This document shows, piece after piece, positions 28,336 to 36,779 of a stretch of DNA of 38,096 nucleotides; the stretch's first letter is position 1, and each line of letters starts with the position of its first letter. A program made the translations under genes and the position numbers. The stretch is from a virus. The DNA is taken from positions 1 to 38,096 of IMG/VR virus record IMGVR_UViG_3300042691_012054; one strand, given 5' to 3'. The notes under the pieces are model-generated. The model had not been told where the DNA came from and ran no database searches. It saw nothing but the letters and a program-made list of their open reading frames with translations.

Positions 28336-29148
28336 ATGGCGACAAAGATCAACAATGAACAATTACCCGATGTGATCAAGAACAAAACAATTGATACATC
28401 AAACGACATCGATACAACAACGACCAAGCTCACGATCACAGGCGGGACGAATGGTCAAGTCTTGTCAACAGATGGTTCAGGAAATCTGTCATGGACAACG
28501 GCGGGCGGTGGAGTTTCCGATGGAGACAAAGGAGACATTACTGTTAGCGGCTCGGGTTCCATTTGGACAATAGATAATGGAGCGGTTAATTATGCTAAGA
28601 TACAGTCGGGGACATCAAATGGCGTGATTGGATATCCCACAACTGGCGCGCCTCAAAGAGTTGGTCTGCATTCAAGTTTAGCATATATTTCGAACACGCT
28701 CGGGACGACATTAGCGAGCAATGCGAACAATCGAAAAGATTTCTTTTTGACAACTACTGGGTTGGTCAATCAAATTGACTATGTGACTATATTCTCAGTA
28801 CAACCCGGACTTGGAACTTGGCTAGTCATGGCAAATCTTGTTGGCTATGCTAACAATGTAAATTTTGTTATGCATGGGCAACTATCTGGAAATCTTGCTG
28901 GAATATCTGAGGGTAGTCAAACGGTAATGGCAAGTGGAACTGCGGGAAGATTCACATCAGCGACTATGACTCTTTTTGGATATCTAACCACGACGACTCT
29001 TAGCACAATTGAAATACGATGTGCGAAAAGTAATGCTCCAGGGTTTAACAGCAACTGGACATTGATACCCGGAACTCAGGACGCAGACGCAACGGGACTT
29101 AGGTTTTCAAGTATAGGAACAAAAATTTCAATTCTGCGGGTTGCATAA
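28336..29148 (+). CDS. Tail fibre / receptor-binding protein (270 aa)
   Basis: The start follows AAGAGGAAAAGTC. The first 100 residues are a fibre stem with Gly/Ser/Thr repeats (TITGGTNGQVLSTDGSGNLS, DKGDITVSGSGSIW). The last 150 residues look like a C1q/TNF-type jelly roll (QPGLGTWLVMANLVGY, STIEIRCAKSN, then LIPGTQDADATGL and ISILRVA), a common receptor-binding tip. It is the last gene of the module and the best candidate for host recognition. Confidence 0.75.
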   Translation: MATKINNEQLPDVIKNKTIDTSNDIDTTTTKLTITGGTNGQVLSTDGSGNLSWTTAGGGVSDGDKGDITVSGSGSIWTIDNGAVNYAKIQSGTSNGVIGYPTTGAPQRVGLHSSLAYISNTLGTTLASNANNRKDFFLTTTGLVNQIDYVTIFSVQPGLGTWLVMANLVGYANNVNFVMHGQLSGNLAGISEGSQTVMASGTAGRFTSATMTLFGYLTTTTLSTIEIRCAKSNAPGFNSNWTLIPGTQDADATGLRFSSIGTKISILRVA

Positions 29149-29152
29149 TAGA

Positions 29153-30034
29153 ATGAAAGAAAAGTCTGACAGACATATCAGGATCAGAGTCTCGCAAGAG
29201 GAATATGGATTCGTTCGCGAAGTGCTTCGTAAGAAAAAAAGCGGAGGTCAACTTCCGAAGATCGAAGAAATTGATTCTTTTGTTTCGGAATGGCTAAACG
29301 ATTTTCCTGATGGTCGTGAAGAAACTTTCAACCCGATTACGATCGAAGGAAAGGCTGCGATCTTGTCTGATATCCATCTCGGGATTCATGACAAGCAAGC
29401 GATCACTTCGGCACTAACATATTTGAAAAAGGAACGAATTGATTTCTTGATCTTGAACGGCGATACTCTTGACTCGACAGAGATCTCTACGCATCCAAAA
29501 AACTCTAAGACTCCAAAATATCTCCACGAAGTAACTCTTGCGAAGTCTTTGCTTTCAGCGATCGCAATCGATTTCCCTCACACAAAGATATATTTCAAAG
29601 AGGGGAACCATGAGGATCGTCTTCAAAGATATATCATGGCGAATGCTGAAGCACTCGATGGAATTGTCGATCTTCCAAAGATTCTTGATCTTGAAGCAAA
29701 GGGTATCGGGTATGTAGAGTCTTTGCGCTACATGATCGTGAACAACATCCATGTTTTCCATGGGCATGAAATTCGAGTTTCAGGAACGAACGCAGCTCGA
29801 AAGCTTTACGATCGCACGGCTCATTCTTCGCTCATGGGTCATGTTCACAAGATCGGTCATTTTGTAAAGAAAGGCACAGACGGCATATATCGCGATGCTT
29901 TCACAACAGGGTGCCTTTGTAAACTATCACAGGGCTACATCATGCACTCAGACTCGCAACATGGCTTTGCAATAATTGAACGCGATGGGAATGTCAGAAA
30001 CCATGAAATAAGAAACGGAGCTATATTGCCATGA
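29153..30034 (+). CDS. Calcineurin-like metallophosphoesterase (293 aa)
   Basis: All metal-binding motifs of the family are present: LSDIHLG (Asp73, His75), LNGDTLDS (Asp104), EGNHEDR (Asn152, His153), FHGHE (His203, His205) and MGHVH (His230, His232). The first 60 residues are an extra, basic N-terminal part (DRHIRIRVSQEEYGFV). A nuclease or phosphatase acting on nucleotides or DNA ends is likely; the substrate cannot be read. Such enzymes occur in many phages of this type. ATG 29153 was chosen over an upstream TTG. Confidence 0.85.
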   Translation: MKEKSDRHIRIRVSQEEYGFVREVLRKKKSGGQLPKIEEIDSFVSEWLNDFPDGREETFNPITIEGKAAILSDIHLGIHDKQAITSALTYLKKERIDFLILNGDTLDSTEISTHPKNSKTPKYLHEVTLAKSLLSAIAIDFPHTKIYFKEGNHEDRLQRYIMANAEALDGIVDLPKILDLEAKGIGYVESLRYMIVNNIHVFHGHEIRVSGTNAARKLYDRTAHSSLMGHVHKIGHFVKKGTDGIYRDAFTTGCLCKLSQGYIMHSDSQHGFAIIERDGNVRNHEIRNGAILP

Positions 30035-30622: not shown

Positions 30623-31150
30623 ATGAAGGTCAAGATCGAAAAGATAAAGGAGAACCCGGATAACCCTCGGTATATTCGAGATGAAAACTTCAAGAAACTC
30701 GTGAAATCGATTCAAGAGTTTCCCGAAATGCTTGCTGTTCGAAAGCTCGTTGTGAATAAAGACATGTTTGTTCTTGGAGGCAATATGAGACTCAAGGCGC
30801 TCAAGGAAGCGGGCGTGAAAGAAATTGAAGTCGAGGTTGTTGATTGGAGCGAAGAAAAGCAAAGAGAATTCATCGTGAAAGATAACCTCGGGTATGGCGA
30901 GTGGAACTTCGAAATGCTCGCGAACGAATGGGACGCAGAATCTCTTGAAGATTGGGGTTTGCGCATCCCGGGATTCGATACAATGGAGAATCTTGAAGAC
31001 CTCTTCAAAATGGATGAACCTGAAGAGAAAGAGGAAAGTTTCAAGATCATTCTTGATTATACCGAAGACGATTACAATTCTGTTCTTGAAGCATTCAAGA
31101 AACATTCAGGATCAAGAGAGGAAATAGTTGCAAGGTTGCTTGGTTTATGA
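30623..31150 (+). CDS. ParB/Srx-like domain protein (175 aa)
   Basis: ATG 30623 follows CTGGAGATAGA; a longer frame upstream lacks conserved residues. The protein shows the ParB/sulfiredoxin-type N-terminal domain: IKENPDNPRYIRDENFKKLV, an NMRLKALKEAGV motif (the 'GGxRR'-like site, here GGNMR), and IEVEVVDWSEEKQREFIVKD followed by NLGYGEWNFEMLANEWD. Phage proteins of this type can be nucleases or regulators next to DNA modification genes. It heads the modification operon and overlaps the small basic gene (ATGA). A role related to that of DpdB, the ParB-like partner in bacterial Dpd systems, is inference. Confidence 0.72.
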   Translation: MKVKIEKIKENPDNPRYIRDENFKKLVKSIQEFPEMLAVRKLVVNKDMFVLGGNMRLKALKEAGVKEIEVEVVDWSEEKQREFIVKDNLGYGEWNFEMLANEWDAESLEDWGLRIPGFDTMENLEDLFKMDEPEEKEESFKIILDYTEDDYNSVLEAFKKHSGSREEIVARLLGL

Positions 31151-31332
31151 GAAAGAAACTGAAAAGCATCTTACAAGAGAGGGTGAAGATCAAAAAAGAT
31201 CTTTTTTCAGCATTGCCAAAGATCAGAACAAGTGAAATTTCGCACATAAACCCATTGTCCTGCGATAATTATGCAGAATTGCGATTCATTTACCGCATGA
31301 AGCGAAAAAATCGCAAGAGAGGCGCCGAATGA
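31147..31332 (+). CDS. Small basic protein of the modification operon (61 aa)
   Basis: The frame overlaps both neighbours by four bases (ATGA at each end), which supports translation. The protein is strongly basic (MRKKLKSILQERVKIKKDLF at the start, RMKRKNRKRGAE at the end) and could contact nucleic acid. No family is recognised. Its place between the ParB-like protein and the transglycosylase suggests an accessory function in DNA modification. Confidence 0.6.
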   Translation: MRKKLKSILQERVKIKKDLFSALPKIRTSEISHINPLSCDNYAELRFIYRMKRKNRKRGAE

Positions 31333-32246
31333 TCGCAGAAAATTGTCATAACCTGAAGATTCACTTCGCAGGAGGGGAATCTCTCATACGATCAAACTTG
31401 ATACTCAGAGGTATTGAATCAAAATATGTTCTTTTCACGATCTTTCCTTATCTCGCAGATTCATTCGGAATCAAGCACGGGTATCAGAGAGGAAAAGAGG
31501 GCTACAAAGAGATTGTTGCGAATAATCTCAAACACTCAAAACATTCGATTCAAGACTCGGGAATCTTTTCTCTTGTTTTCGGGGCTGCGAAATCGAATTG
31601 GAGCAAGGAATTTATAGACTCATGGTATCACAAATTGGTTGAATTGACTCTTGAAGAAAATTTCACAGGGTCTGTCGTTGAGGTAGATAGTCAGAAACTT
31701 TTTGGAGTAGAAAACGCATGGTATTACAGAGAGCGAATGAGGCGCGATCTTCCGAACAATCGAATAATCAATGTCTTTCATCTTGAAGATGGACAAAAGG
31801 GTCTTGATCGTTTGATCGAGTTTTCTGATTACATCGCACTATCGATACCCGAGCTTCGTTTCAGTGGCAAGAGATCATATGTCGAAAAGATTGCTCACTA
31901 TGTGAAGAATAAGAAACCCGAAATCGATATTCATTTGCTTGGTTGCACAGAGAATAAACTCATGCGCAATTTGTCTTTCTGTTCATCTGCTGACTCTACA
32001 TCTTGGACAGCATTCAATAAGTTTGGGTTCTTCAGATACAACAACGGAAATAAGACCTTCACGGTCAAAAAAGGTTTGCTCAACAAAGATGTGCTTCGAG
32101 AGCAATACTACGACCGAGCAATCGAACTGATGGAAATGTCAGGGTTGAAGAAAACAGAGGGCATGATCTTTTACAATGCTTGCCATTTGTTACAACTTGA
32201 ATATCTCATGAAACAATACACCCATTATGCAGGTCCTCAGGATTAG
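31329..32246 (+). CDS. dpdA: DpdA-like DNA 7-deazaguanine transglycosylase
   Basis: This 305-aa protein is a TGT-superfamily enzyme of the phage DpdA type, which replaces guanine bases in DNA by a 7-deazaguanine. Visible features are SIQDSGIFSLVFGA (Asp76-Ser-Gly, matching the TGT 'DSGG' strand), VVEVDSQKLFG (118-126), VFHLEDGQKGLDRLI (149-163), YIALSIPELRFSG, HLLGCTEN (202-209) and the ADSTSW motif (Asp222), probably containing the catalytic Asp. The C-terminal zinc-binding part of tRNA TGTs is absent, as in DpdA. It is overlapped by its neighbours in an operon with preQ0 synthesis genes, which strongly supports a DNA rather than tRNA role. Confidence 0.85.
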   Translation: MIAENCHNLKIHFAGGESLIRSNLILRGIESKYVLFTIFPYLADSFGIKHGYQRGKEGYKEIVANNLKHSKHSIQDSGIFSLVFGAAKSNWSKEFIDSWYHKLVELTLEENFTGSVVEVDSQKLFGVENAWYYRERMRRDLPNNRIINVFHLEDGQKGLDRLIEFSDYIALSIPELRFSGKRSYVEKIAHYVKNKKPEIDIHLLGCTENKLMRNLSFCSSADSTSWTAFNKFGFFRYNNGNKTFTVKKGLLNKDVLREQYYDRAIELMEMSGLKKTEGMIFYNACHLLQLEYLMKQYTHYAGPQD

Positions 32247-32799
32247 TCTCTATTTGCTTGCGATCATTCTTTCAAACTTTAGTGTTCTATGGTTTGGAAG
32301 ATCAGGAATAATCTTTGCGTCGCTTTTCCTGATGCCATTCGATTACGCAATGCGGTGTTATTTTCATGAGAAATGGAAAGGTAACGACCTAATAGCGAAA
32401 ATAGGCGCAATAACCCTTATAGGAGGCGCGATAACATTCTTGATCAATAAAGATACTCAAGCAATCGCAATCGCGTCTTCAGGATCATTCGTGATCTCTC
32501 AAATGCTCGCGAGTCTATTTTACAGAATGAATATAGACAGAGGATATTTCTTGAAGGTGAACGGGAGCGATCTTGTTGCGATTCTCGCAGATTCAATAGT
32601 ATTCCAAATGATCGCGTTCGGGAATCTTGACAAAGATATATTTCTTGCGCAAATCATTCTGAAAGCGATCGGTGGTCTTTTTTGGTATGGGGTATTCTTC
32701 AGCAAAGGAAAAGATTCTTATTTGCTTCGAGATATTGCGCAAGGTAGCTATATTTGGAATAGTCATGAAAACAGAAGAGGAAAGAATGAAAAAAGATAA
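32227..32799 (+). CDS. YhhQ/VUT-like queuosine-precursor transporter
   Basis: This 190-aa integral membrane protein has five to six hydrophobic helices, with charged residues between them (ILSNFSVLWFGRSGIIFASL, IGAITLIGGAITFLI). The motif ADSIVFQMIAFGN with a conserved Asp before the helix matches the VUT_1 family, whose bacterial member YhhQ takes up preQ0/preQ1. It overlaps dpdA (20 bases) and queC (14 bases). The phage could thus use external precursor as well as make it. Substrate assignment is by family and context. Confidence 0.72.
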   Translation: MQVLRISLYLLAIILSNFSVLWFGRSGIIFASLFLMPFDYAMRCYFHEKWKGNDLIAKIGAITLIGGAITFLINKDTQAIAIASSGSFVISQMLASLFYRMNIDRGYFLKVNGSDLVAILADSIVFQMIAFGNLDKDIFLAQIILKAIGGLFWYGVFFSKGKDSYLLRDIAQGSYIWNSHENRRGKNEKR

Positions 32800-33457
32800 A
32801 TGTCTTGTCTTGCTATCAGGCGGTCAAGATTCAACAACTTGTCTTTATTGGGCAAAAGATCGCTTTGCAGAGGTTCATGCGATTGGATTTGATTACGGTC
32901 AGTCTCACGCGATCGAACTCGAGAAAGCAAAAGAAATTGCTGAAGAGGCGAATGTTCCATTCAAGATATACAACTTGAAAGGTTTATTTTCTTCAAGCTC
33001 TCTCACAGAGGGTGGCGATCACAATCAAGCAAGTAAGATTGGAGATAATTTACCCGCAAGTTTCGTTGCCGGAAGGAATCTTGTTTTTCTTTCGATCGCG
33101 GGATCTTATTGCGCAGACCATGGCATTCAAGATATCGTGACTGGCGTTTGTCAAACAGATTACTCAGGGTACCCCGATTGTAGAAGATCAACGATCGATG
33201 CTCTTCAACTCGCACTAACGCTTGGCGTTAGCATTGGAGATATCAGAATCCATACCCCTCTCATGTATCTCTCGAAAGCAGAGACTTGGAAACTGGCTAA
33301 GGATCTTGGAGTCTTGAAGATCATTGTTGAAAAGACCATGACCGATTACAATGGATCAGAGATTGTTAATGAGTGGGGTCTTGGCGAGCTTAATAACCCC
33401 GCATCCATCCTGAGAGCAAAAGGGTATCTTGAAGCAAAAGCGATGGGGTGGTTATGA
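32786..33457 (+). CDS. queC: 7-cyano-7-deazaguanine synthase QueC, divergent C-terminus
   Basis: QueC turns 7-carboxy-7-deazaguanine into preQ0 with ATP and ammonia. The family P-loop LLSGGQDSTTCL (residues 9-20), GFDYGQSHAIEL, FVAGRNLVFLS, GVCQTDYSGYPDCR and TPLMYLSKAETWKLA are all present in 223 aa, the usual length. The zinc site is not: where other QueC proteins have a Cys in 'LTCYNG' and three more in 'CGxCxxC', this one reads TMTDYNG (Asp187) and NEWGLGELNNPASILRAKG. The LRAKG end is kept, so this is not a frameshift. ATG 32786 was chosen for its GAGG site; an ATG at 32765 is possible. Identity is sure, exact product less so. Confidence 0.9.
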   Translation: MKKDKCLVLLSGGQDSTTCLYWAKDRFAEVHAIGFDYGQSHAIELEKAKEIAEEANVPFKIYNLKGLFSSSSLTEGGDHNQASKIGDNLPASFVAGRNLVFLSIAGSYCADHGIQDIVTGVCQTDYSGYPDCRRSTIDALQLALTLGVSIGDIRIHTPLMYLSKAETWKLAKDLGVLKIIVEKTMTDYNGSEIVNEWGLGELNNPASILRAKGYLEAKAMGWL

Positions 33458-33894
33458 GGAATACATACATAGCAGAAAGATACCACGATATCTCTTGCGG
33501 TCATAGGGTCGTTGGTCATGAATCCAAATGTCGATTCATTCACGGTCATAATTATCGCATACATTTCGTTTGCGTCTCTGAAGCTCTCGATCATTTAGGA
33601 CGTGTGATAGATTTCTCAGTTATCAAAGAAAAATTGTGCATGTGGATCGAGAATGAATTCGATCACAAAACTTTAATTTGGAAGAATGATCCAATGCTTC
33701 AGGCGCTACAAGAAATATCAAGAGAAAGCATAGTTGTTGTGCCATTTAACCCAACCGCAGAGAATATCGCAGAACACCTCGTGACAGAGATCGCTCCCGC
33801 CTTGCTTGAAGACACAGGTATAATTTTACTCGAGTGCAGGGTTGAGGAGACAAGAAAGTGTTCTGCTGTTTATCGTAGAGGAGATAAGGAATGA
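33454..33894 (+). CDS. queD: 6-carboxytetrahydropterin synthase QueD
   Basis: This 146-aa protein makes 6-carboxy-tetrahydropterin from dihydroneopterin triphosphate, the second step to preQ0. Zinc ligands His17 (GHR) and His30/His32 (IHGHNY), catalytic Cys26 (ESKCRF), the VIDFSVIK segment, FDHKTL and NPTAENIAEHL are all visible, with a final RVEET. The start overlaps the QueC stop (ATGA). It depends on the FolE product made by the last gene of the operon. Confidence 0.95.
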   Translation: MRNTYIAERYHDISCGHRVVGHESKCRFIHGHNYRIHFVCVSEALDHLGRVIDFSVIKEKLCMWIENEFDHKTLIWKNDPMLQALQEISRESIVVVPFNPTAENIAEHLVTEIAPALLEDTGIILLECRVEETRKCSAVYRRGDKE

Positions 33895-34493
33895 AACTAA
33901 ATGTATCAGAAATGTTCTATTCATTACAAGCAGAGGGTGCTCGAAAAGGAACGCCGACATTCTTCATTCGATTACAGGGTTGTAAAGCGAAGCATGCTTG
34001 TTACGCTTCAGGCGTGAGATGCGACACAGAATTCGAATCAGGAAGCGCAAAGAGTCTTGAAGATATCCTCATATGGATGCGCAAGACGAATCCTGATTGC
34101 TTCGAGATAACTTGGACAGGGGGCGAGCCTCTCGATCAGTTAACAGAAGAAATTGTTTCTTTCTTCAAAGATCGTGGATTCTTTCAAGCGGTCGAGACTT
34201 CGGGTCTTCATCCTTGCGATATCGGTCTTGACTTTATATGCGTTTCCCCAAAAGTAGCCGAGCATGTAATCGAGAAAAATTTTCCAAGTGGCGTTGATGA
34301 ATTGCGGTATGTTCGACATATCGGTCAAGATATCCCAAGACCCTCTGTTTCGGCAACGCATCTATGGATCAGCCCGCATAGCGACGGCAATTTAATAAAC
34401 AAAGAGAATCTTCGCCATTGTATTGATCTTTGCTTGAAGAATCCAAATTGGAAATTATCTGTTCAGGATCACAAGGTATGGAATATATTGTAA
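33891..34493 (+). CDS. queE: 7-carboxy-7-deazaguanine synthase QueE (radical SAM)
   Basis: This 200-aa radical SAM enzyme forms the 7-deazaguanine ring. The N-terminus MKLNVSEMFYSLQAEGARKG and TPTFFIRLQGC are typical; the cluster cysteines are Cys31, Cys37 and Cys44 in an extended loop (GCKAKHACYASGVRCDTEF), a known QueE variation on the radical SAM CX3CX2C. TWTGGEPL, VETSG and ICVSPK complete the signature. It overlaps queD (ATGA) and folE (16 bases). Confidence 0.93.
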   Translation: MKLNVSEMFYSLQAEGARKGTPTFFIRLQGCKAKHACYASGVRCDTEFESGSAKSLEDILIWMRKTNPDCFEITWTGGEPLDQLTEEIVSFFKDRGFFQAVETSGLHPCDIGLDFICVSPKVAEHVIEKNFPSGVDELRYVRHIGQDIPRPSVSATHLWISPHSDGNLINKENLRHCIDLCLKNPNWKLSVQDHKVWNIL

Positions 34494-35290
34494 CTTGGGA
34501 AGAAATTAAGCAGAGGGTCAGCAAACTTGATCCGAGCAAAAAATACTACGGCATTCCAAGGGGCGGTCAATATATCGCCGCGATGCTGAACCCAGTTGAT
34601 ACCGTGAATGATTGCGACATCATTATCGATGACTTGATCGACTCAGGGTCGACAAGAGATCGCTACAAATATACCGCAAAGCCATTCGTTGGACTTTTCG
34701 ACAAAACGACTGAACCCGAGCTTCGAGACAAATGGCTTGTATTCCCTTGGGAAATGAAGAACGAACCGATCGAGGACAATGTCCGAAGAATCATTCAATT
34801 CATTGGCGAAGATGTTCACAGAGAGGGTCTTCGAGATACACCGAAACGCTATGCGAAATTTCTCAAGGAATTTCTTGAAGAAAAGGAATTCAATTTCACT
34901 ACTTTCGATTCTGAAGGTATGGACCAAATGATCGTGCAAAGAGAAATACAATTTCATTCGCTATGCGAACACCATCTCGCGCCATTCTTTGGAACGGCTA
35001 CTATCGCATATATCCCGAACAAAAAGATTGTTGGTCTTTCAAAGCTCTCCAGAGTCGTGGATCATTATGCGAATAGATTACAGAATCAAGAAAGAATCAC
35101 TCAGCAAATCGCAGATCGCATCGAGAATGAACTCGACCCATTAGGAGTCGCAGTGAGCTTGACCGCAGAGCATCTTTGTATGAGTATGCGAGGAATAAAG
35201 AAAGTCGGAGCCAAGACAACGACCCAATGCCTGAAAGGAAAATTCATGACAGATGAACAGACAAGATCAGAATTCATGCGCCTAATTTAA
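34478..35290 (+). CDS. folE: Fusion of a short phosphoribosyltransferase domain and GTP cyclohydrolase I (FolE)
   Basis: Residues 99-270 are a zinc-dependent GTP cyclohydrolase I: NVRRIIQFIGEDVHREGLRD, FHSLCEHHLAPFFG (Cys163, His166), KIVGLSKLSRVVDHYANRLQ, and TAEHLCMSMRGI (Cys234). It makes dihydroneopterin triphosphate for QueD. Residues 1-90 are a type I phosphoribosyltransferase-like part: YYGIPRGGQYIAAM and the PRPP loop IIIDDLIDSGSTRDRY (48-63), then AKPFVGLFDK. This part is about half the usual length. Its role is unknown; it could recycle purine or feed GTP. ATG 34478 with ACAAGG upstream lies inside queE. It closes the modification operon. Confidence 0.92.
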   Translation: MEYIVTWEEIKQRVSKLDPSKKYYGIPRGGQYIAAMLNPVDTVNDCDIIIDDLIDSGSTRDRYKYTAKPFVGLFDKTTEPELRDKWLVFPWEMKNEPIEDNVRRIIQFIGEDVHREGLRDTPKRYAKFLKEFLEEKEFNFTTFDSEGMDQMIVQREIQFHSLCEHHLAPFFGTATIAYIPNKKIVGLSKLSRVVDHYANRLQNQERITQQIADRIENELDPLGVAVSLTAEHLCMSMRGIKKVGAKTTTQCLKGKFMTDEQTRSEFMRLI

Positions 35291-35320: not shown

Positions 35321-35635
35321 ATGCCCAACAGCGAGAACATAATCGGCAAAGGCAATCGCTGGAAGAAAGGAGAGAGCGGAAATCCGAAGGGAAGACCGAA
35401 GAAGCTACCCGATCTTCGCGAGTCTCTTGTGGAGATCATGGGTGATGAAAAGAAAGACAAGACAGCTCTCTTTGCGATCTTGGCAAGGCTCAGGAATGAT
35501 GCGTTGAATGGAAACATTCGCGCAGCTGAACTCTTGCTTCGTTACGCATACCCTCACGGCATAGAGTCTGAAGCCGAGACAGACATCGAATTCGTTTGGG
35601 GTAAAATGAATGTAGGCAAAGAGCATGAAACTTAG
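35321..35635 (+). CDS. Small terminase subunit (DUF5681-like N-terminus)
   Basis: This 104-aa protein begins with the motif RWKKGESGNPKGRPKKLPDL, typical of DUF5681-type proteins encoded before large terminases, followed by helices (ALFAILARLRNDALNGNIRA, AELLLRYAYPHG). It should bind the packaging site and stimulate the large subunit. The large terminase gene starts inside it (11-base overlap). Confidence 0.8.
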   Translation: MPNSENIIGKGNRWKKGESGNPKGRPKKLPDLRESLVEIMGDEKKDKTALFAILARLRNDALNGNIRAAELLLRYAYPHGIESEAETDIEFVWGKMNVGKEHET

Positions 35636-36779
35636 AATCGAACTTCATGAGAAACAACATGAGATACTTGAAGAGCATAATCGTTTTAATGTTGTGCGTT
35701 GCGGTCGTCGTTTCGGCAAGAGTTTTCTCGCTTTTGCTCTCGCTCTTGAAACGATGCTCGAAACAAGAGGATCGCATGTCCTCTACACAGCTCCAAGCTA
35801 TCAAGACCTCAAGAAAAGATATCGAGATGCGAAGAAGCTATTCATCCCTCTTGGAGCAATATGCAAAGAGGGCGAGATCAAACTAAAGGATTCGTATCTT
35901 GAATTCAATGGAGTCTGGAGATCGGAGACGATCAGAGGCAATGCATACAACAGGGTCATTTGTGATGAGTGGGCGTATGCTGAAAATGGCGAAGAGGCTT
36001 GGAATGATGTTATCTTTCCAACCCTCGCAGATCACGAAGGCGATGCTTTTTTCTTTTCAACGCCGAGCGGTCGCAATCATTTTTACGACCTTGACAAAAT
36101 GTCTGATCTGTATGCGAACTGGTCGTCGTTTCATTATACATCGTATGACAATCCCCTTATTCGAAAGAGTGAGATCGATCTCGCAAGACAACAATTACCC
36201 TCTCTTGCCTTTGCGCAAGAATATCTTGCAGAATATATCGATCGAGGCGCATCAAAGATCAAGCGCGAATGGATCAATACAGATGACTCGAAAGTCTGCA
36301 AAGACTTTTACATCGGCGTGGATCTTGCGATCTCTCAGAAAGAAACAGCAGACTTCACGGCTATCGTTGCCATAGGAGTAACAGAAGATCAACAGATCGT
36401 GATCGTTGATGCTATTCGAGGACGATGGACATTTGTAGAGATAGGCAAGAGAATAATCGAGATGCACGACAAATGGCAAGCAAGAGTTGTTGGCGTTGAA
36501 TCTGTTCAAGCACAAGCTTGGATGGTTCAAGAACTGAAGAGAACGACCCGGATGAATGTGGTCGGCATGAAAGCAGACCGAGACAAAGTGATCAGGTTCC
36601 AGCCAGTAGAGGCAAGATACGAACAGGGCTTGATCTCTCATGTCTCAAGTCTTCCAAGAGAATTCACAGAAGAACTTTTGAATTTTACAGGCACGAGCCA
36701 AGATAGACACGATGACTTTATCGACGCGCTTGCCTATGCATTCCATGCAATCAGAAAAACACCGAGCATAAAAATATGA
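35625..36779 (+). CDS. Large terminase subunit
   Basis: This 384-aa protein is the packaging motor. The ATPase part has Walker A RCGRRFGKS (residues 25-33), Walker B NRVICDEWAYAE (Asp114, Glu115) and the coupling motif FFFSTPSGRNH. The nuclease part has YIGVDLAIS (Asp233) and the terminal DDFIDALAYA acidic cluster. It is somewhat shorter than many large terminases but complete. It overlaps the portal gene by four bases (ATGA). Confidence 0.95.
   Translation: MKLRIELHEKQHEILEEHNRFNVVRCGRRFGKSFLAFALALETMLETRGSHVLYTAPSYQDLKKRYRDAKKLFIPLGAICKEGEIKLKDSYLEFNGVWRSETIRGNAYNRVICDEWAYAENGEEAWNDVIFPTLADHEGDAFFFSTPSGRNHFYDLDKMSDLYANWSSFHYTSYDNPLIRKSEIDLARQQLPSLAFAQEYLAEYIDRGASKIKREWINTDDSKVCKDFYIGVDLAISQKETADFTAIVAIGVTEDQQIVIVDAIRGRWTFVEIGKRIIEMHDKWQARVVGVESVQAQAWMVQELKRTTRMNVVGMKADRDKVIRFQPVEARYEQGLISHVSSLPREFTEELLNFTGTSQDRHDDFIDALAYAFHAIRKTPSIKI

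What the first reader, a model, noticed from the sequence alone, without database searches (positions are those of the whole stretch)
30623..35290. Compact operon for 7-deazaguanine DNA modification
Eight overlapping or nearly overlapping genes encode a ParB-like protein, a small basic protein, a DpdA-like transglycosylase, a YhhQ-like transporter, QueC, QueD, QueE and FolE. Seen: the family motifs of each enzyme and four- to twenty-base overlaps. Known: FolE-QueD-QueE-QueC make preQ0, and phage DpdA inserts 7-deazaguanines into DNA, protecting from restriction. Inference: this phage carries preQ0 (or a derivative) in place of some guanines. No QueF, ArcS or Gat-QueC gene is visible, so deoxy-preQ0 is the simplest prediction.
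Basis: partly seen in the sequence, partly recalled or inferred. Interest (0 to 1): 0.85.

Follow-up and report, generated by a model that had tools for sequence, protein, structure and literature searches.

The report
Phage operon making 7-deazaguanine DNA bases
This small virus of bacteria carries a tightly packed set of genes that very probably replaces some guanines in its DNA with a modified guanine, a known anti-restriction trick, but here the set has unusual parts: a zinc-free QueC, and a guanine-salvage-like domain fused to the first enzyme.

Summary
In detail: 30623-35290 encodes ParB, a 61-aa protein, DpdA, YhhQ, QueC, QueD, QueE and FolE, with 4-20 base overlaps, just upstream of the terminase. 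The window is a complete ~38 kb phage genome (69-bp end repeat). DpdA is a divergent DpdA1-like transglycosylase, not a tRNA TGT by profile, so DpdA-dependent 7-deazaguanine DNA modification is the best reading. That kind of system is known. Not reported in the papers I could read: (1) this QueC belongs to a monophyletic environmental-phage clade in which all four zinc cysteines are gone (every QueC in 79 other contigs) while the residues essential in E. coli QueC remain; (2) FolE carries an N-terminal xanthine-guanine phosphoribosyltransferase-like domain, found only with DpdA wherever checked, which could recycle the guanine that DpdA releases; (3) QueE has a CX5CX6C instead of a CX3CX2C cluster motif; (4) QueC and a ~110-aa QueD-like protein (phrog_17812) are mutually exclusive in about 180 loci, and a complete colinear sister phage carries the latter where this one carries QueC: a natural swap of the enzyme expected to decide the base. 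Predicted base: dPreQ0, with dADG possible. All functional steps are inferred; no chemistry was measured.

The parts
30623..31150 (+). ParB-like protein (ParB_N domain), candidate DpdB-like partner of DpdA
   Evidence: PF02195 1.8e-6; phrog_498 ParB-DNA methyltransferase 7e-28; ParB gene within 700 bp of DpdA in 131 of 138 viral DpdA loci with enough upstream sequence; DpdB described as ParB-like (PMC6392294, PMC12839542)
31147..31332 (+). 61-aa basic protein of unknown function in the slot that QDL occupies in the sister phage
   Evidence: 4-bp overlaps on both sides; no family hit; matched only in near-identical L002 among loci fetched
31329..32246 (+). DpdA: DpdA1-like DNA guanine transglycosylase
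   Evidence: phrog_887 5e-20; invariant D76-S77-G78, H151, H202, D222 aligned with 9g/CAjan DpdA; model pLDDT 92, Foldseek top hits TGT 1q63 and bacterial DpdA 7ui4
32227..32799 (+). YhhQ/VUT-type queuosine-precursor transporter
   Evidence: PF02592 1.7e-6, TIGR00697 5e-4, below its cut-off
32786..33457 (+). QueC of a zinc-free clade
   Evidence: PF06508 5e-61; SGGQDS, YGQSH..E, GRN, YPDC and DY (Tyr189 equivalent) kept, four Zn cysteines absent; zinc-free rows monophyletic, SH-aLRT 97
33454..33894 (+). QueD (6-carboxytetrahydropterin synthase)
   Evidence: PF01242 8e-26, phrog_2389 9e-50; CxxxHGH motif
33891..34493 (+). QueE (radical SAM CDG synthase) with CX5CX6C cluster motif
   Evidence: phrog_2076 2e-20, TIGR04508 9e-30, below its cut-off; CX5CX6C in 71 QueE loci of the set
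34478..34768 (+). N-terminal XGPRT-like phosphoribosyltransferase domain of the fused PRT-FolE protein
   Evidence: phmmer to E. coli XGPRT 5e-4; model pLDDT 94.6, Foldseek top hit XGPRT 4jls E 5e-5; RGG, DDLIDSGST, K76, W86, PWE conserved
34769..35290 (+). FolE (GTP cyclohydrolase I) domain of the fused protein
   Evidence: PF01227 1.4e-66 over residues 98-270

Best explanation
A self-contained phage operon for 7-deazaguanine DNA modification. FolE, QueD and QueE turn GTP into 7-carboxy-7-deazaguanine (CDG). The zinc-free QueC turns CDG into preQ0 (or stops at the amide, ADG). YhhQ may supplement by importing precursor. DpdA, helped by the adjacent ParB-like protein (a DpdB-like role), exchanges guanine in the phage DNA for that base, giving dPreQ0 (or dADG), which protects against host restriction. 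The XGPRT-like domain fused to FolE is proposed to turn the guanine released by DpdA back into GMP, and hence via kinases into the GTP that FolE consumes. QueC here has replaced a QueD-like protein (QDL) that most relatives carry instead. Shown: genes, order, homology, conservation, folds, mutual exclusion. Inferred: every enzymatic step, the base, and the biological role.
For: Complete pathway plus DpdA in one overlapping operon, conserved across many contigs. DpdA: phrog_887 5e-20 with no tRNA-TGT family hit, profile matches to 9g, CAjan and Bipper DpdA, catalytic-type residues invariant, TGT/DpdA fold. QueC keeps the four residues essential in E. coli QueC (Y35, R99, Y131, Y189; PMC13329287; alignment). 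Phages with DpdA plus FolE/QueDEC and no amidotransferase, CAjan and Rosebush, carry dPreQ0 (PMC6884629). ParB next to DpdA in 131/138 viral loci and 16/18 bacterial-genome loci. PRT-FolE in 11 of 11 isolates tested that also encode DpdA.
Against: QueC lacks its zinc site, so full activity to preQ0 is unproven. QueE's cluster motif is non-canonical. The PRT domain lacks the stretch between RGG and DDLID of XGPRT, so it may bind rather than catalyse; 64 of 161 FolE-carrying loci have FolE without it. DpdA is only ~20% identical to the DpdA clade that usually goes with this QueC. No virion DNA data exist.
Confidence: 0.8

Rival explanations
1. Same system, but the zinc-free QueC is a one-step CDG amidotransferase (ADG synthase), so the DNA carries dADG rather than dPreQ0.
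For: The whole clade has lost the four zinc ligands and fixed a new motif TDYNG...NEWG.G...NPA(T/S) in their place. ADG is the intermediate of QueC (PMC13329287), and phage dADG exists (PMC8306585).
Against: All four residues shown essential in E. coli QueC are kept; zinc may be only structural; nothing shows that the zinc site governs the second step.
Confidence: 0.2
2. The operon boosts host tRNA queuosine (a translation aid) and the DpdA-like protein is a tRNA transglycosylase.
For: The fold is that of TGT, with tRNA TGT structures among the top hits.
Against: No Pfam or NCBIfam TGT hit; profile kinship is with DpdA1 including the His196 position of 9g; ParB partner and terminase neighbourhood; no queA/queG seen.
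Confidence: 0.05
3. QueC, and/or a transglycosylase-like protein, deazaguanylates a protein as in type IV CBASS (Cap9/Cap10) or Qat, acting as a decoy or regulator instead of modifying DNA.
For: QueC-family enzymes and a TGT-family enzyme (Cap10) are now known in protein deazaguanylation (PMC13329287, PMC11996544 abstract).
Against: Gene set is the full biosynthetic pathway with no CD-NTase/QatB-like partner; QueC keeps the canonical YxQxH/YPDC signature; DpdA matches DNA-modifying DpdA1.
Confidence: 0.04
4. The PRT domain makes a ribonucleotide of the 7-deazaguanine base itself (or only senses PRPP or purines to gate FolE) rather than salvaging guanine.
For: The domain lacks a segment of XGPRT; several PRT proteins are regulators (general knowledge).
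Against: PPi loop, PRPP motif, Lys115 and Trp134 equivalents are nearly invariant; found only with DpdA, which releases guanine.
Confidence: 0.4

Closest known systems
Phage DpdA1 systems with FolE-QueD-QueE-QueC and no amidotransferase (Escherichia phage CAjan, Mycobacterium phage Rosebush; dPreQ0)
   Same: Same pathway genes plus a DpdA1-related transglycosylase; no QueF, ArcS or Gat found.
   Different: Here one overlapping operon with ParB and YhhQ; QueC without zinc site; QueE with CX5CX6C; PRT-FolE fusion; DpdA strongly diverged.
Cellulophaga phage phiSM locus
   Same: DpdA, ParB, QueC, QueD, QueE clustered; its DpdA matches profile A1 at 1.6e-53 (phiSM is itself a row of A1).
   Different: phiSM QueC keeps the zinc cysteines; no PRT domain found; QueE is CX3CX6C.
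Pseudomonas/Stenotrophomonas/Vibrio/Xanthomonas/Variovorax phages with PRT-FolE (e.g. PaMx25, ply2008005c, VpKK5)
   Same: Same XGPRT-like domain on FolE, with DpdA in the same genome, and FolE directly adjacent to the transglycosylase gene in ply2008005c.
   Different: Annotated only as GTP cyclohydrolase or hypothetical; Gat-QueC-type or canonical QueC; different gene order.
Bacterial Dpd restriction-modification island
   Same: DpdA plus a ParB-like protein (DpdB role).
   Different: No DpdC-DpdK restriction genes found; phage-borne; has its own FolE/QueCDE.
Relatives with a QueD-like protein and no QueC (complete sister phage G002 = L129/L130; also phages phiST, ACP17, Roos)
   Same: G002 and the IMG/VR relatives have ParB, DpdA and mostly QueD, QueE, FolE; G002 is colinear with the window over the genome at ~75% nucleotide identity. 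phiST and ACP17 have QueD, QueE, FolE and the QueD-like gene.
   Different: Carry phrog_17812 protein instead of QueC; expected to end at CDG or 7-deazaguanine rather than preQ0. phiST and ACP17 have no DpdA detectable with profile A1. I recall that Cui et al. 2023 (NAR gkad657, not held) named a CDG decarboxylase DpdL and found dCDG and dDG; whether this protein is DpdL could not be checked.

Membership tests
Phage DpdA-dependent 7-deazaguanine DNA-modification system | DpdA transglycosylase distinct from tRNA TGT | tested here: met
   phrog_887 5e-20, no Pfam/NCBIfam TGT hit; A1 profile finds 9g, CAjan, Bipper DpdA
Phage DpdA-dependent 7-deazaguanine DNA-modification system | Biosynthesis genes FolE, QueD, QueE, QueC in the genome | tested here: met
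Phage DpdA-dependent 7-deazaguanine DNA-modification system | Modified guanine in virion DNA | not testable with these tools
   needs LC-MS
DpdA1 (9g type) | Conserved His at 9g position 196 and Asp/DSG motifs | tested here: met
   H202, D76-S77-G78 and D222 align with 9g H196, DSGAF and DSSSW
DpdA2, DpdA3, DpdA4 subfamilies | Similarity to DpdA of nt-1, CP220, HVTV-1 | tested here: not met
   A1 profile finds nothing in these three records at E<=1
Canonical QueC (PF06508 cluster 1) | SGGxDS, YxQxHxxE, VPxRN, YPDC and Tyr189 | tested here: met
   present (VAGRN for VPxRN) (motifs from PMC13329287)
Canonical QueC (PF06508 cluster 1) | C(x)8CxxCxxC zinc motif | tested here: not met
   absent here and in every QueC ORF of the 79 other IMG/VR contigs found
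Radical SAM QueE | CX3CX2C (or CX14CX2C) cluster motif | tested here: not met
   CX5CX6C; otherwise TIGR04508 9e-30 and phrog_2076 2e-20
XGPRT-type phosphoribosyltransferase (N-terminal domain of FolE) | PPi loop RGG, PRPP motif DDLxDSGxT, Lys115 and Trp134 equivalents, fold | tested here: met
XGPRT-type phosphoribosyltransferase (N-terminal domain of FolE) | Segment between RGG and DDLxD (active-site flexible loop) | tested here: not met
   deleted
Bacterial Dpd restriction-modification system | DpdC (DUF328) and restriction genes DpdD-K | tested here: inconclusive
   about 40 window proteins scanned against PHROGs, eight also against NCBIfam, none matching; the remaining small ORFs and the PADLOC library were not scanned

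The most novel reading that the evidence does not exclude
The cluster is a closed guanine-recycling version of DNA 7-deazaguanylation: the phosphoribosyltransferase domain fused to FolE re-salvages each guanine that DpdA expels, and the zinc-free QueC clade is an interchangeable terminal module (with QDL as its alternative) that phages swap to change the chemical identity of their DNA base while keeping the rest of the operon.
Probability: 0.35. Interest if true: 0.72.

Novelty: new variant of a known kind. Interest (0 to 1): 0.58.

Why it matters
If right, two closely related natural phage genomes differ in the enzyme that sets their DNA base, which would let one ask directly what each 7-deazaguanine protects against. 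A metal-free QueC would test why QueC carries zinc and whether zinc is needed for one or both ATP steps. A phosphoribosyltransferase tied to FolE in DpdA phages would explain what happens to the guanine released by base exchange, a step I found no account of in the papers I could read.

Tried and rejected
Profile search of DpdA against PDB sequences gave only chance hits; fold comparison was needed. QDL-QueD kinship by hhalign is weak (E 0.0027, probability 11%), so 'QueD-like' rests mainly on parallel motifs. QDL has no Pfam family match above its cut-off. The 61-aa protein as a remnant of QDL: no resemblance seen. A separate QueF: the only match over cut-off lies inside FolE. Near-identity search found no relative among GenBank phages. 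Cui et al. 2023 could not be read. Window host: not determined.
Full report
OBSERVATION. The eight genes exist as described: ParB 30623-31150, a 61-aa basic protein 31147-31332, DpdA 31329-32246, YhhQ 32227-32799, QueC 32786-33457, QueD 33454-33894, QueE 33891-34493 and a FolE fusion 34478-35290, each overlapping the next by 4 to 20 bases. Small and large terminase genes follow (35321-36779). The window has a 69-bp direct terminal repeat, so it is a complete, circularly permuted ~38 kb tailed-phage genome; other genes are head, primase/helicase, Sak4-like, SSB and endolysin, and there is no tRNA.

DpdA. Pfam and NCBIfam give no hit; PHROGs gives phrog_887 at 5e-20. A profile from 40 relatives finds the DpdA of 9g (4e-26), CAjan (7e-25) and Bipper (6e-18), but nothing in nt-1 (DpdA2), CP220 or HVTV-1; that the latter two stand for DpdA3 and DpdA4 is from memory. 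The AlphaFold model (pLDDT 92) matches TGT and the bacterial DNA preQ0 insertase DpdA (7ui4). D76-S77-G78, H202 and D222 are invariant in the set and align with 9g, H202 with the 9g His196 that PMC6884629 treats as a DpdA1 mark.

QUEC. The C-terminal zinc motif of QueC is missing: TDYNGSEIVNEWGLGELNNPASILR against TCYNG...GCGECPACKLR in CAjan. Every QueC ORF found in the 79 other IMG/VR contigs lacks it, the zinc-free rows form one side of a branch with SH-aLRT 97, and isolates (CAjan, phiSM, MT836583, 9g, nt-1, CP220, HVTV-1) keep it, so this is a clade property and not a sequencing error. The residues shown essential in E. coli QueC (Y35, R99, Y131, Y189; PMC13329287) are kept. I infer that it still activates CDG; whether it ends at preQ0 or ADG is open.

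QUEE. The cluster cysteines are CX5CX6C. In the collected loci 71 QueEs have CX5CX6C, 59 have CX3CX18C and 17 the canonical CX3CX2C. The spacing is conserved within groups, so it is real, but its effect on the Fe-S cluster is unknown.

PRT-FOLE. The first ~97 residues of the FolE gene form a separate domain (pLDDT 94.6) whose best structural matches are E. coli XGPRT (E 5e-5); phmmer also finds XGPRT (5e-4). The RGG pyrophosphate loop, the DDLIDSGST PRPP motif, and the Lys115 and Trp134 equivalents are nearly invariant; the segment between RGG and DDLID is deleted. All 11 of these tested encode DpdA. Since DpdA expels one guanine for each base inserted, I propose guanine to GMP to GTP recycling. 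This is inference.

PARB. A ParB-like gene lies within 700 bp of DpdA in 131 of 138 viral loci and in 16 of 18 bacterial-genome loci. The literature describes DpdB of the bacterial system as a ParB-like ATPase involved in insertion, possibly dispensable in some clusters (PMC12839542), and suggested a dpdB homologue next to dpdA in mycobacteriophage CRB2 (PMC6392294). A DpdB-like role is likely but untested.

THE SWAP. Of 19 contigs found with the window DpdA, only one (near-identical to the window) has QueC. Most others have a ~110-aa protein, phrog_17812 ('QDL'), with HRH, SCE.IA and ED motifs that parallel QueD; hhalign kinship to QueD is weak. Over all loci 96 have QDL without QueC, 81 have QueC without QDL, and none has both (some loci come from the same contig). 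On whole contigs, 0 of 50 QDL contigs have QueC and 0 of 50 QueC contigs have QDL (whose empty answer is backed by the same profile finding QDL elsewhere). The window DpdA is nested in the QDL clade (61 rows: 56 QDL, 3 neither, 2 QueC; sister L003 carries QDL; SH-aLRT 99 and 100). L003's genome G002 is also complete (38,100 bp, 127-bp end repeat) and colinear with the window; it has ParB-QDL-DpdA-DpdA'-YhhQ-QueD-QueE-PRT-FolE and no QueC. Thus between two complete sister phages QDL was exchanged for QueC. As both sit with FolE-QueD-QueE, the simplest reading is that they are alternative enzymes acting on CDG. QDL may be the CDG decarboxylase DpdL of Cui et al. 2023, which I know only from memory.

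LIMITS. No host, no chemistry, no expression data. Loci were seeded with the window's own proteins, so frequencies are not population estimates. Trees are quick ones. Absence from incomplete contigs is weak evidence, except for the window and G002.

Noticed in passing
L130:1-1623 (G002): The sister phage carries two tandem DpdA genes; the second is ~49% identical to the window DpdA and falls elsewhere in the tree of QDL-type DpdAs, so it may have been acquired rather than duplicated.
   Followed up: partly
L010, L014, L017, L018, L210, L211, L224, L227: Several phage contigs and contigs from bacterial genomes, mostly Clostridia (with Faecalibacterium phage Roos, L022, of the same kind), have only ParB, (QDL), DpdA and a YhhQ-type transporter in the fetched stretch, suggesting reliance on imported or host-made base.
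   Followed up: partly
QueE genes in L041, L046 and 57 others: A second unusual radical SAM cluster motif, CX3CX18C, with a conserved insert CGGxGTQxDxELHxxAxWRCD.
   Followed up: no
window 29141-30034: Calcineurin-like metallophosphoesterase gene just upstream of the operon, also present upstream of ParB in the sister phage.
   Followed up: no
L098:4501-6669: A second phage with a QDL-type DpdA and zinc-free QueC but no 61-aa gene; possibly an independent QDL-to-QueC exchange.
   Followed up: partly
window 31147-31332: 61-aa basic protein coupled by 4-bp overlaps to both neighbours; no relative found except in the near-identical contig L002.
   Followed up: no
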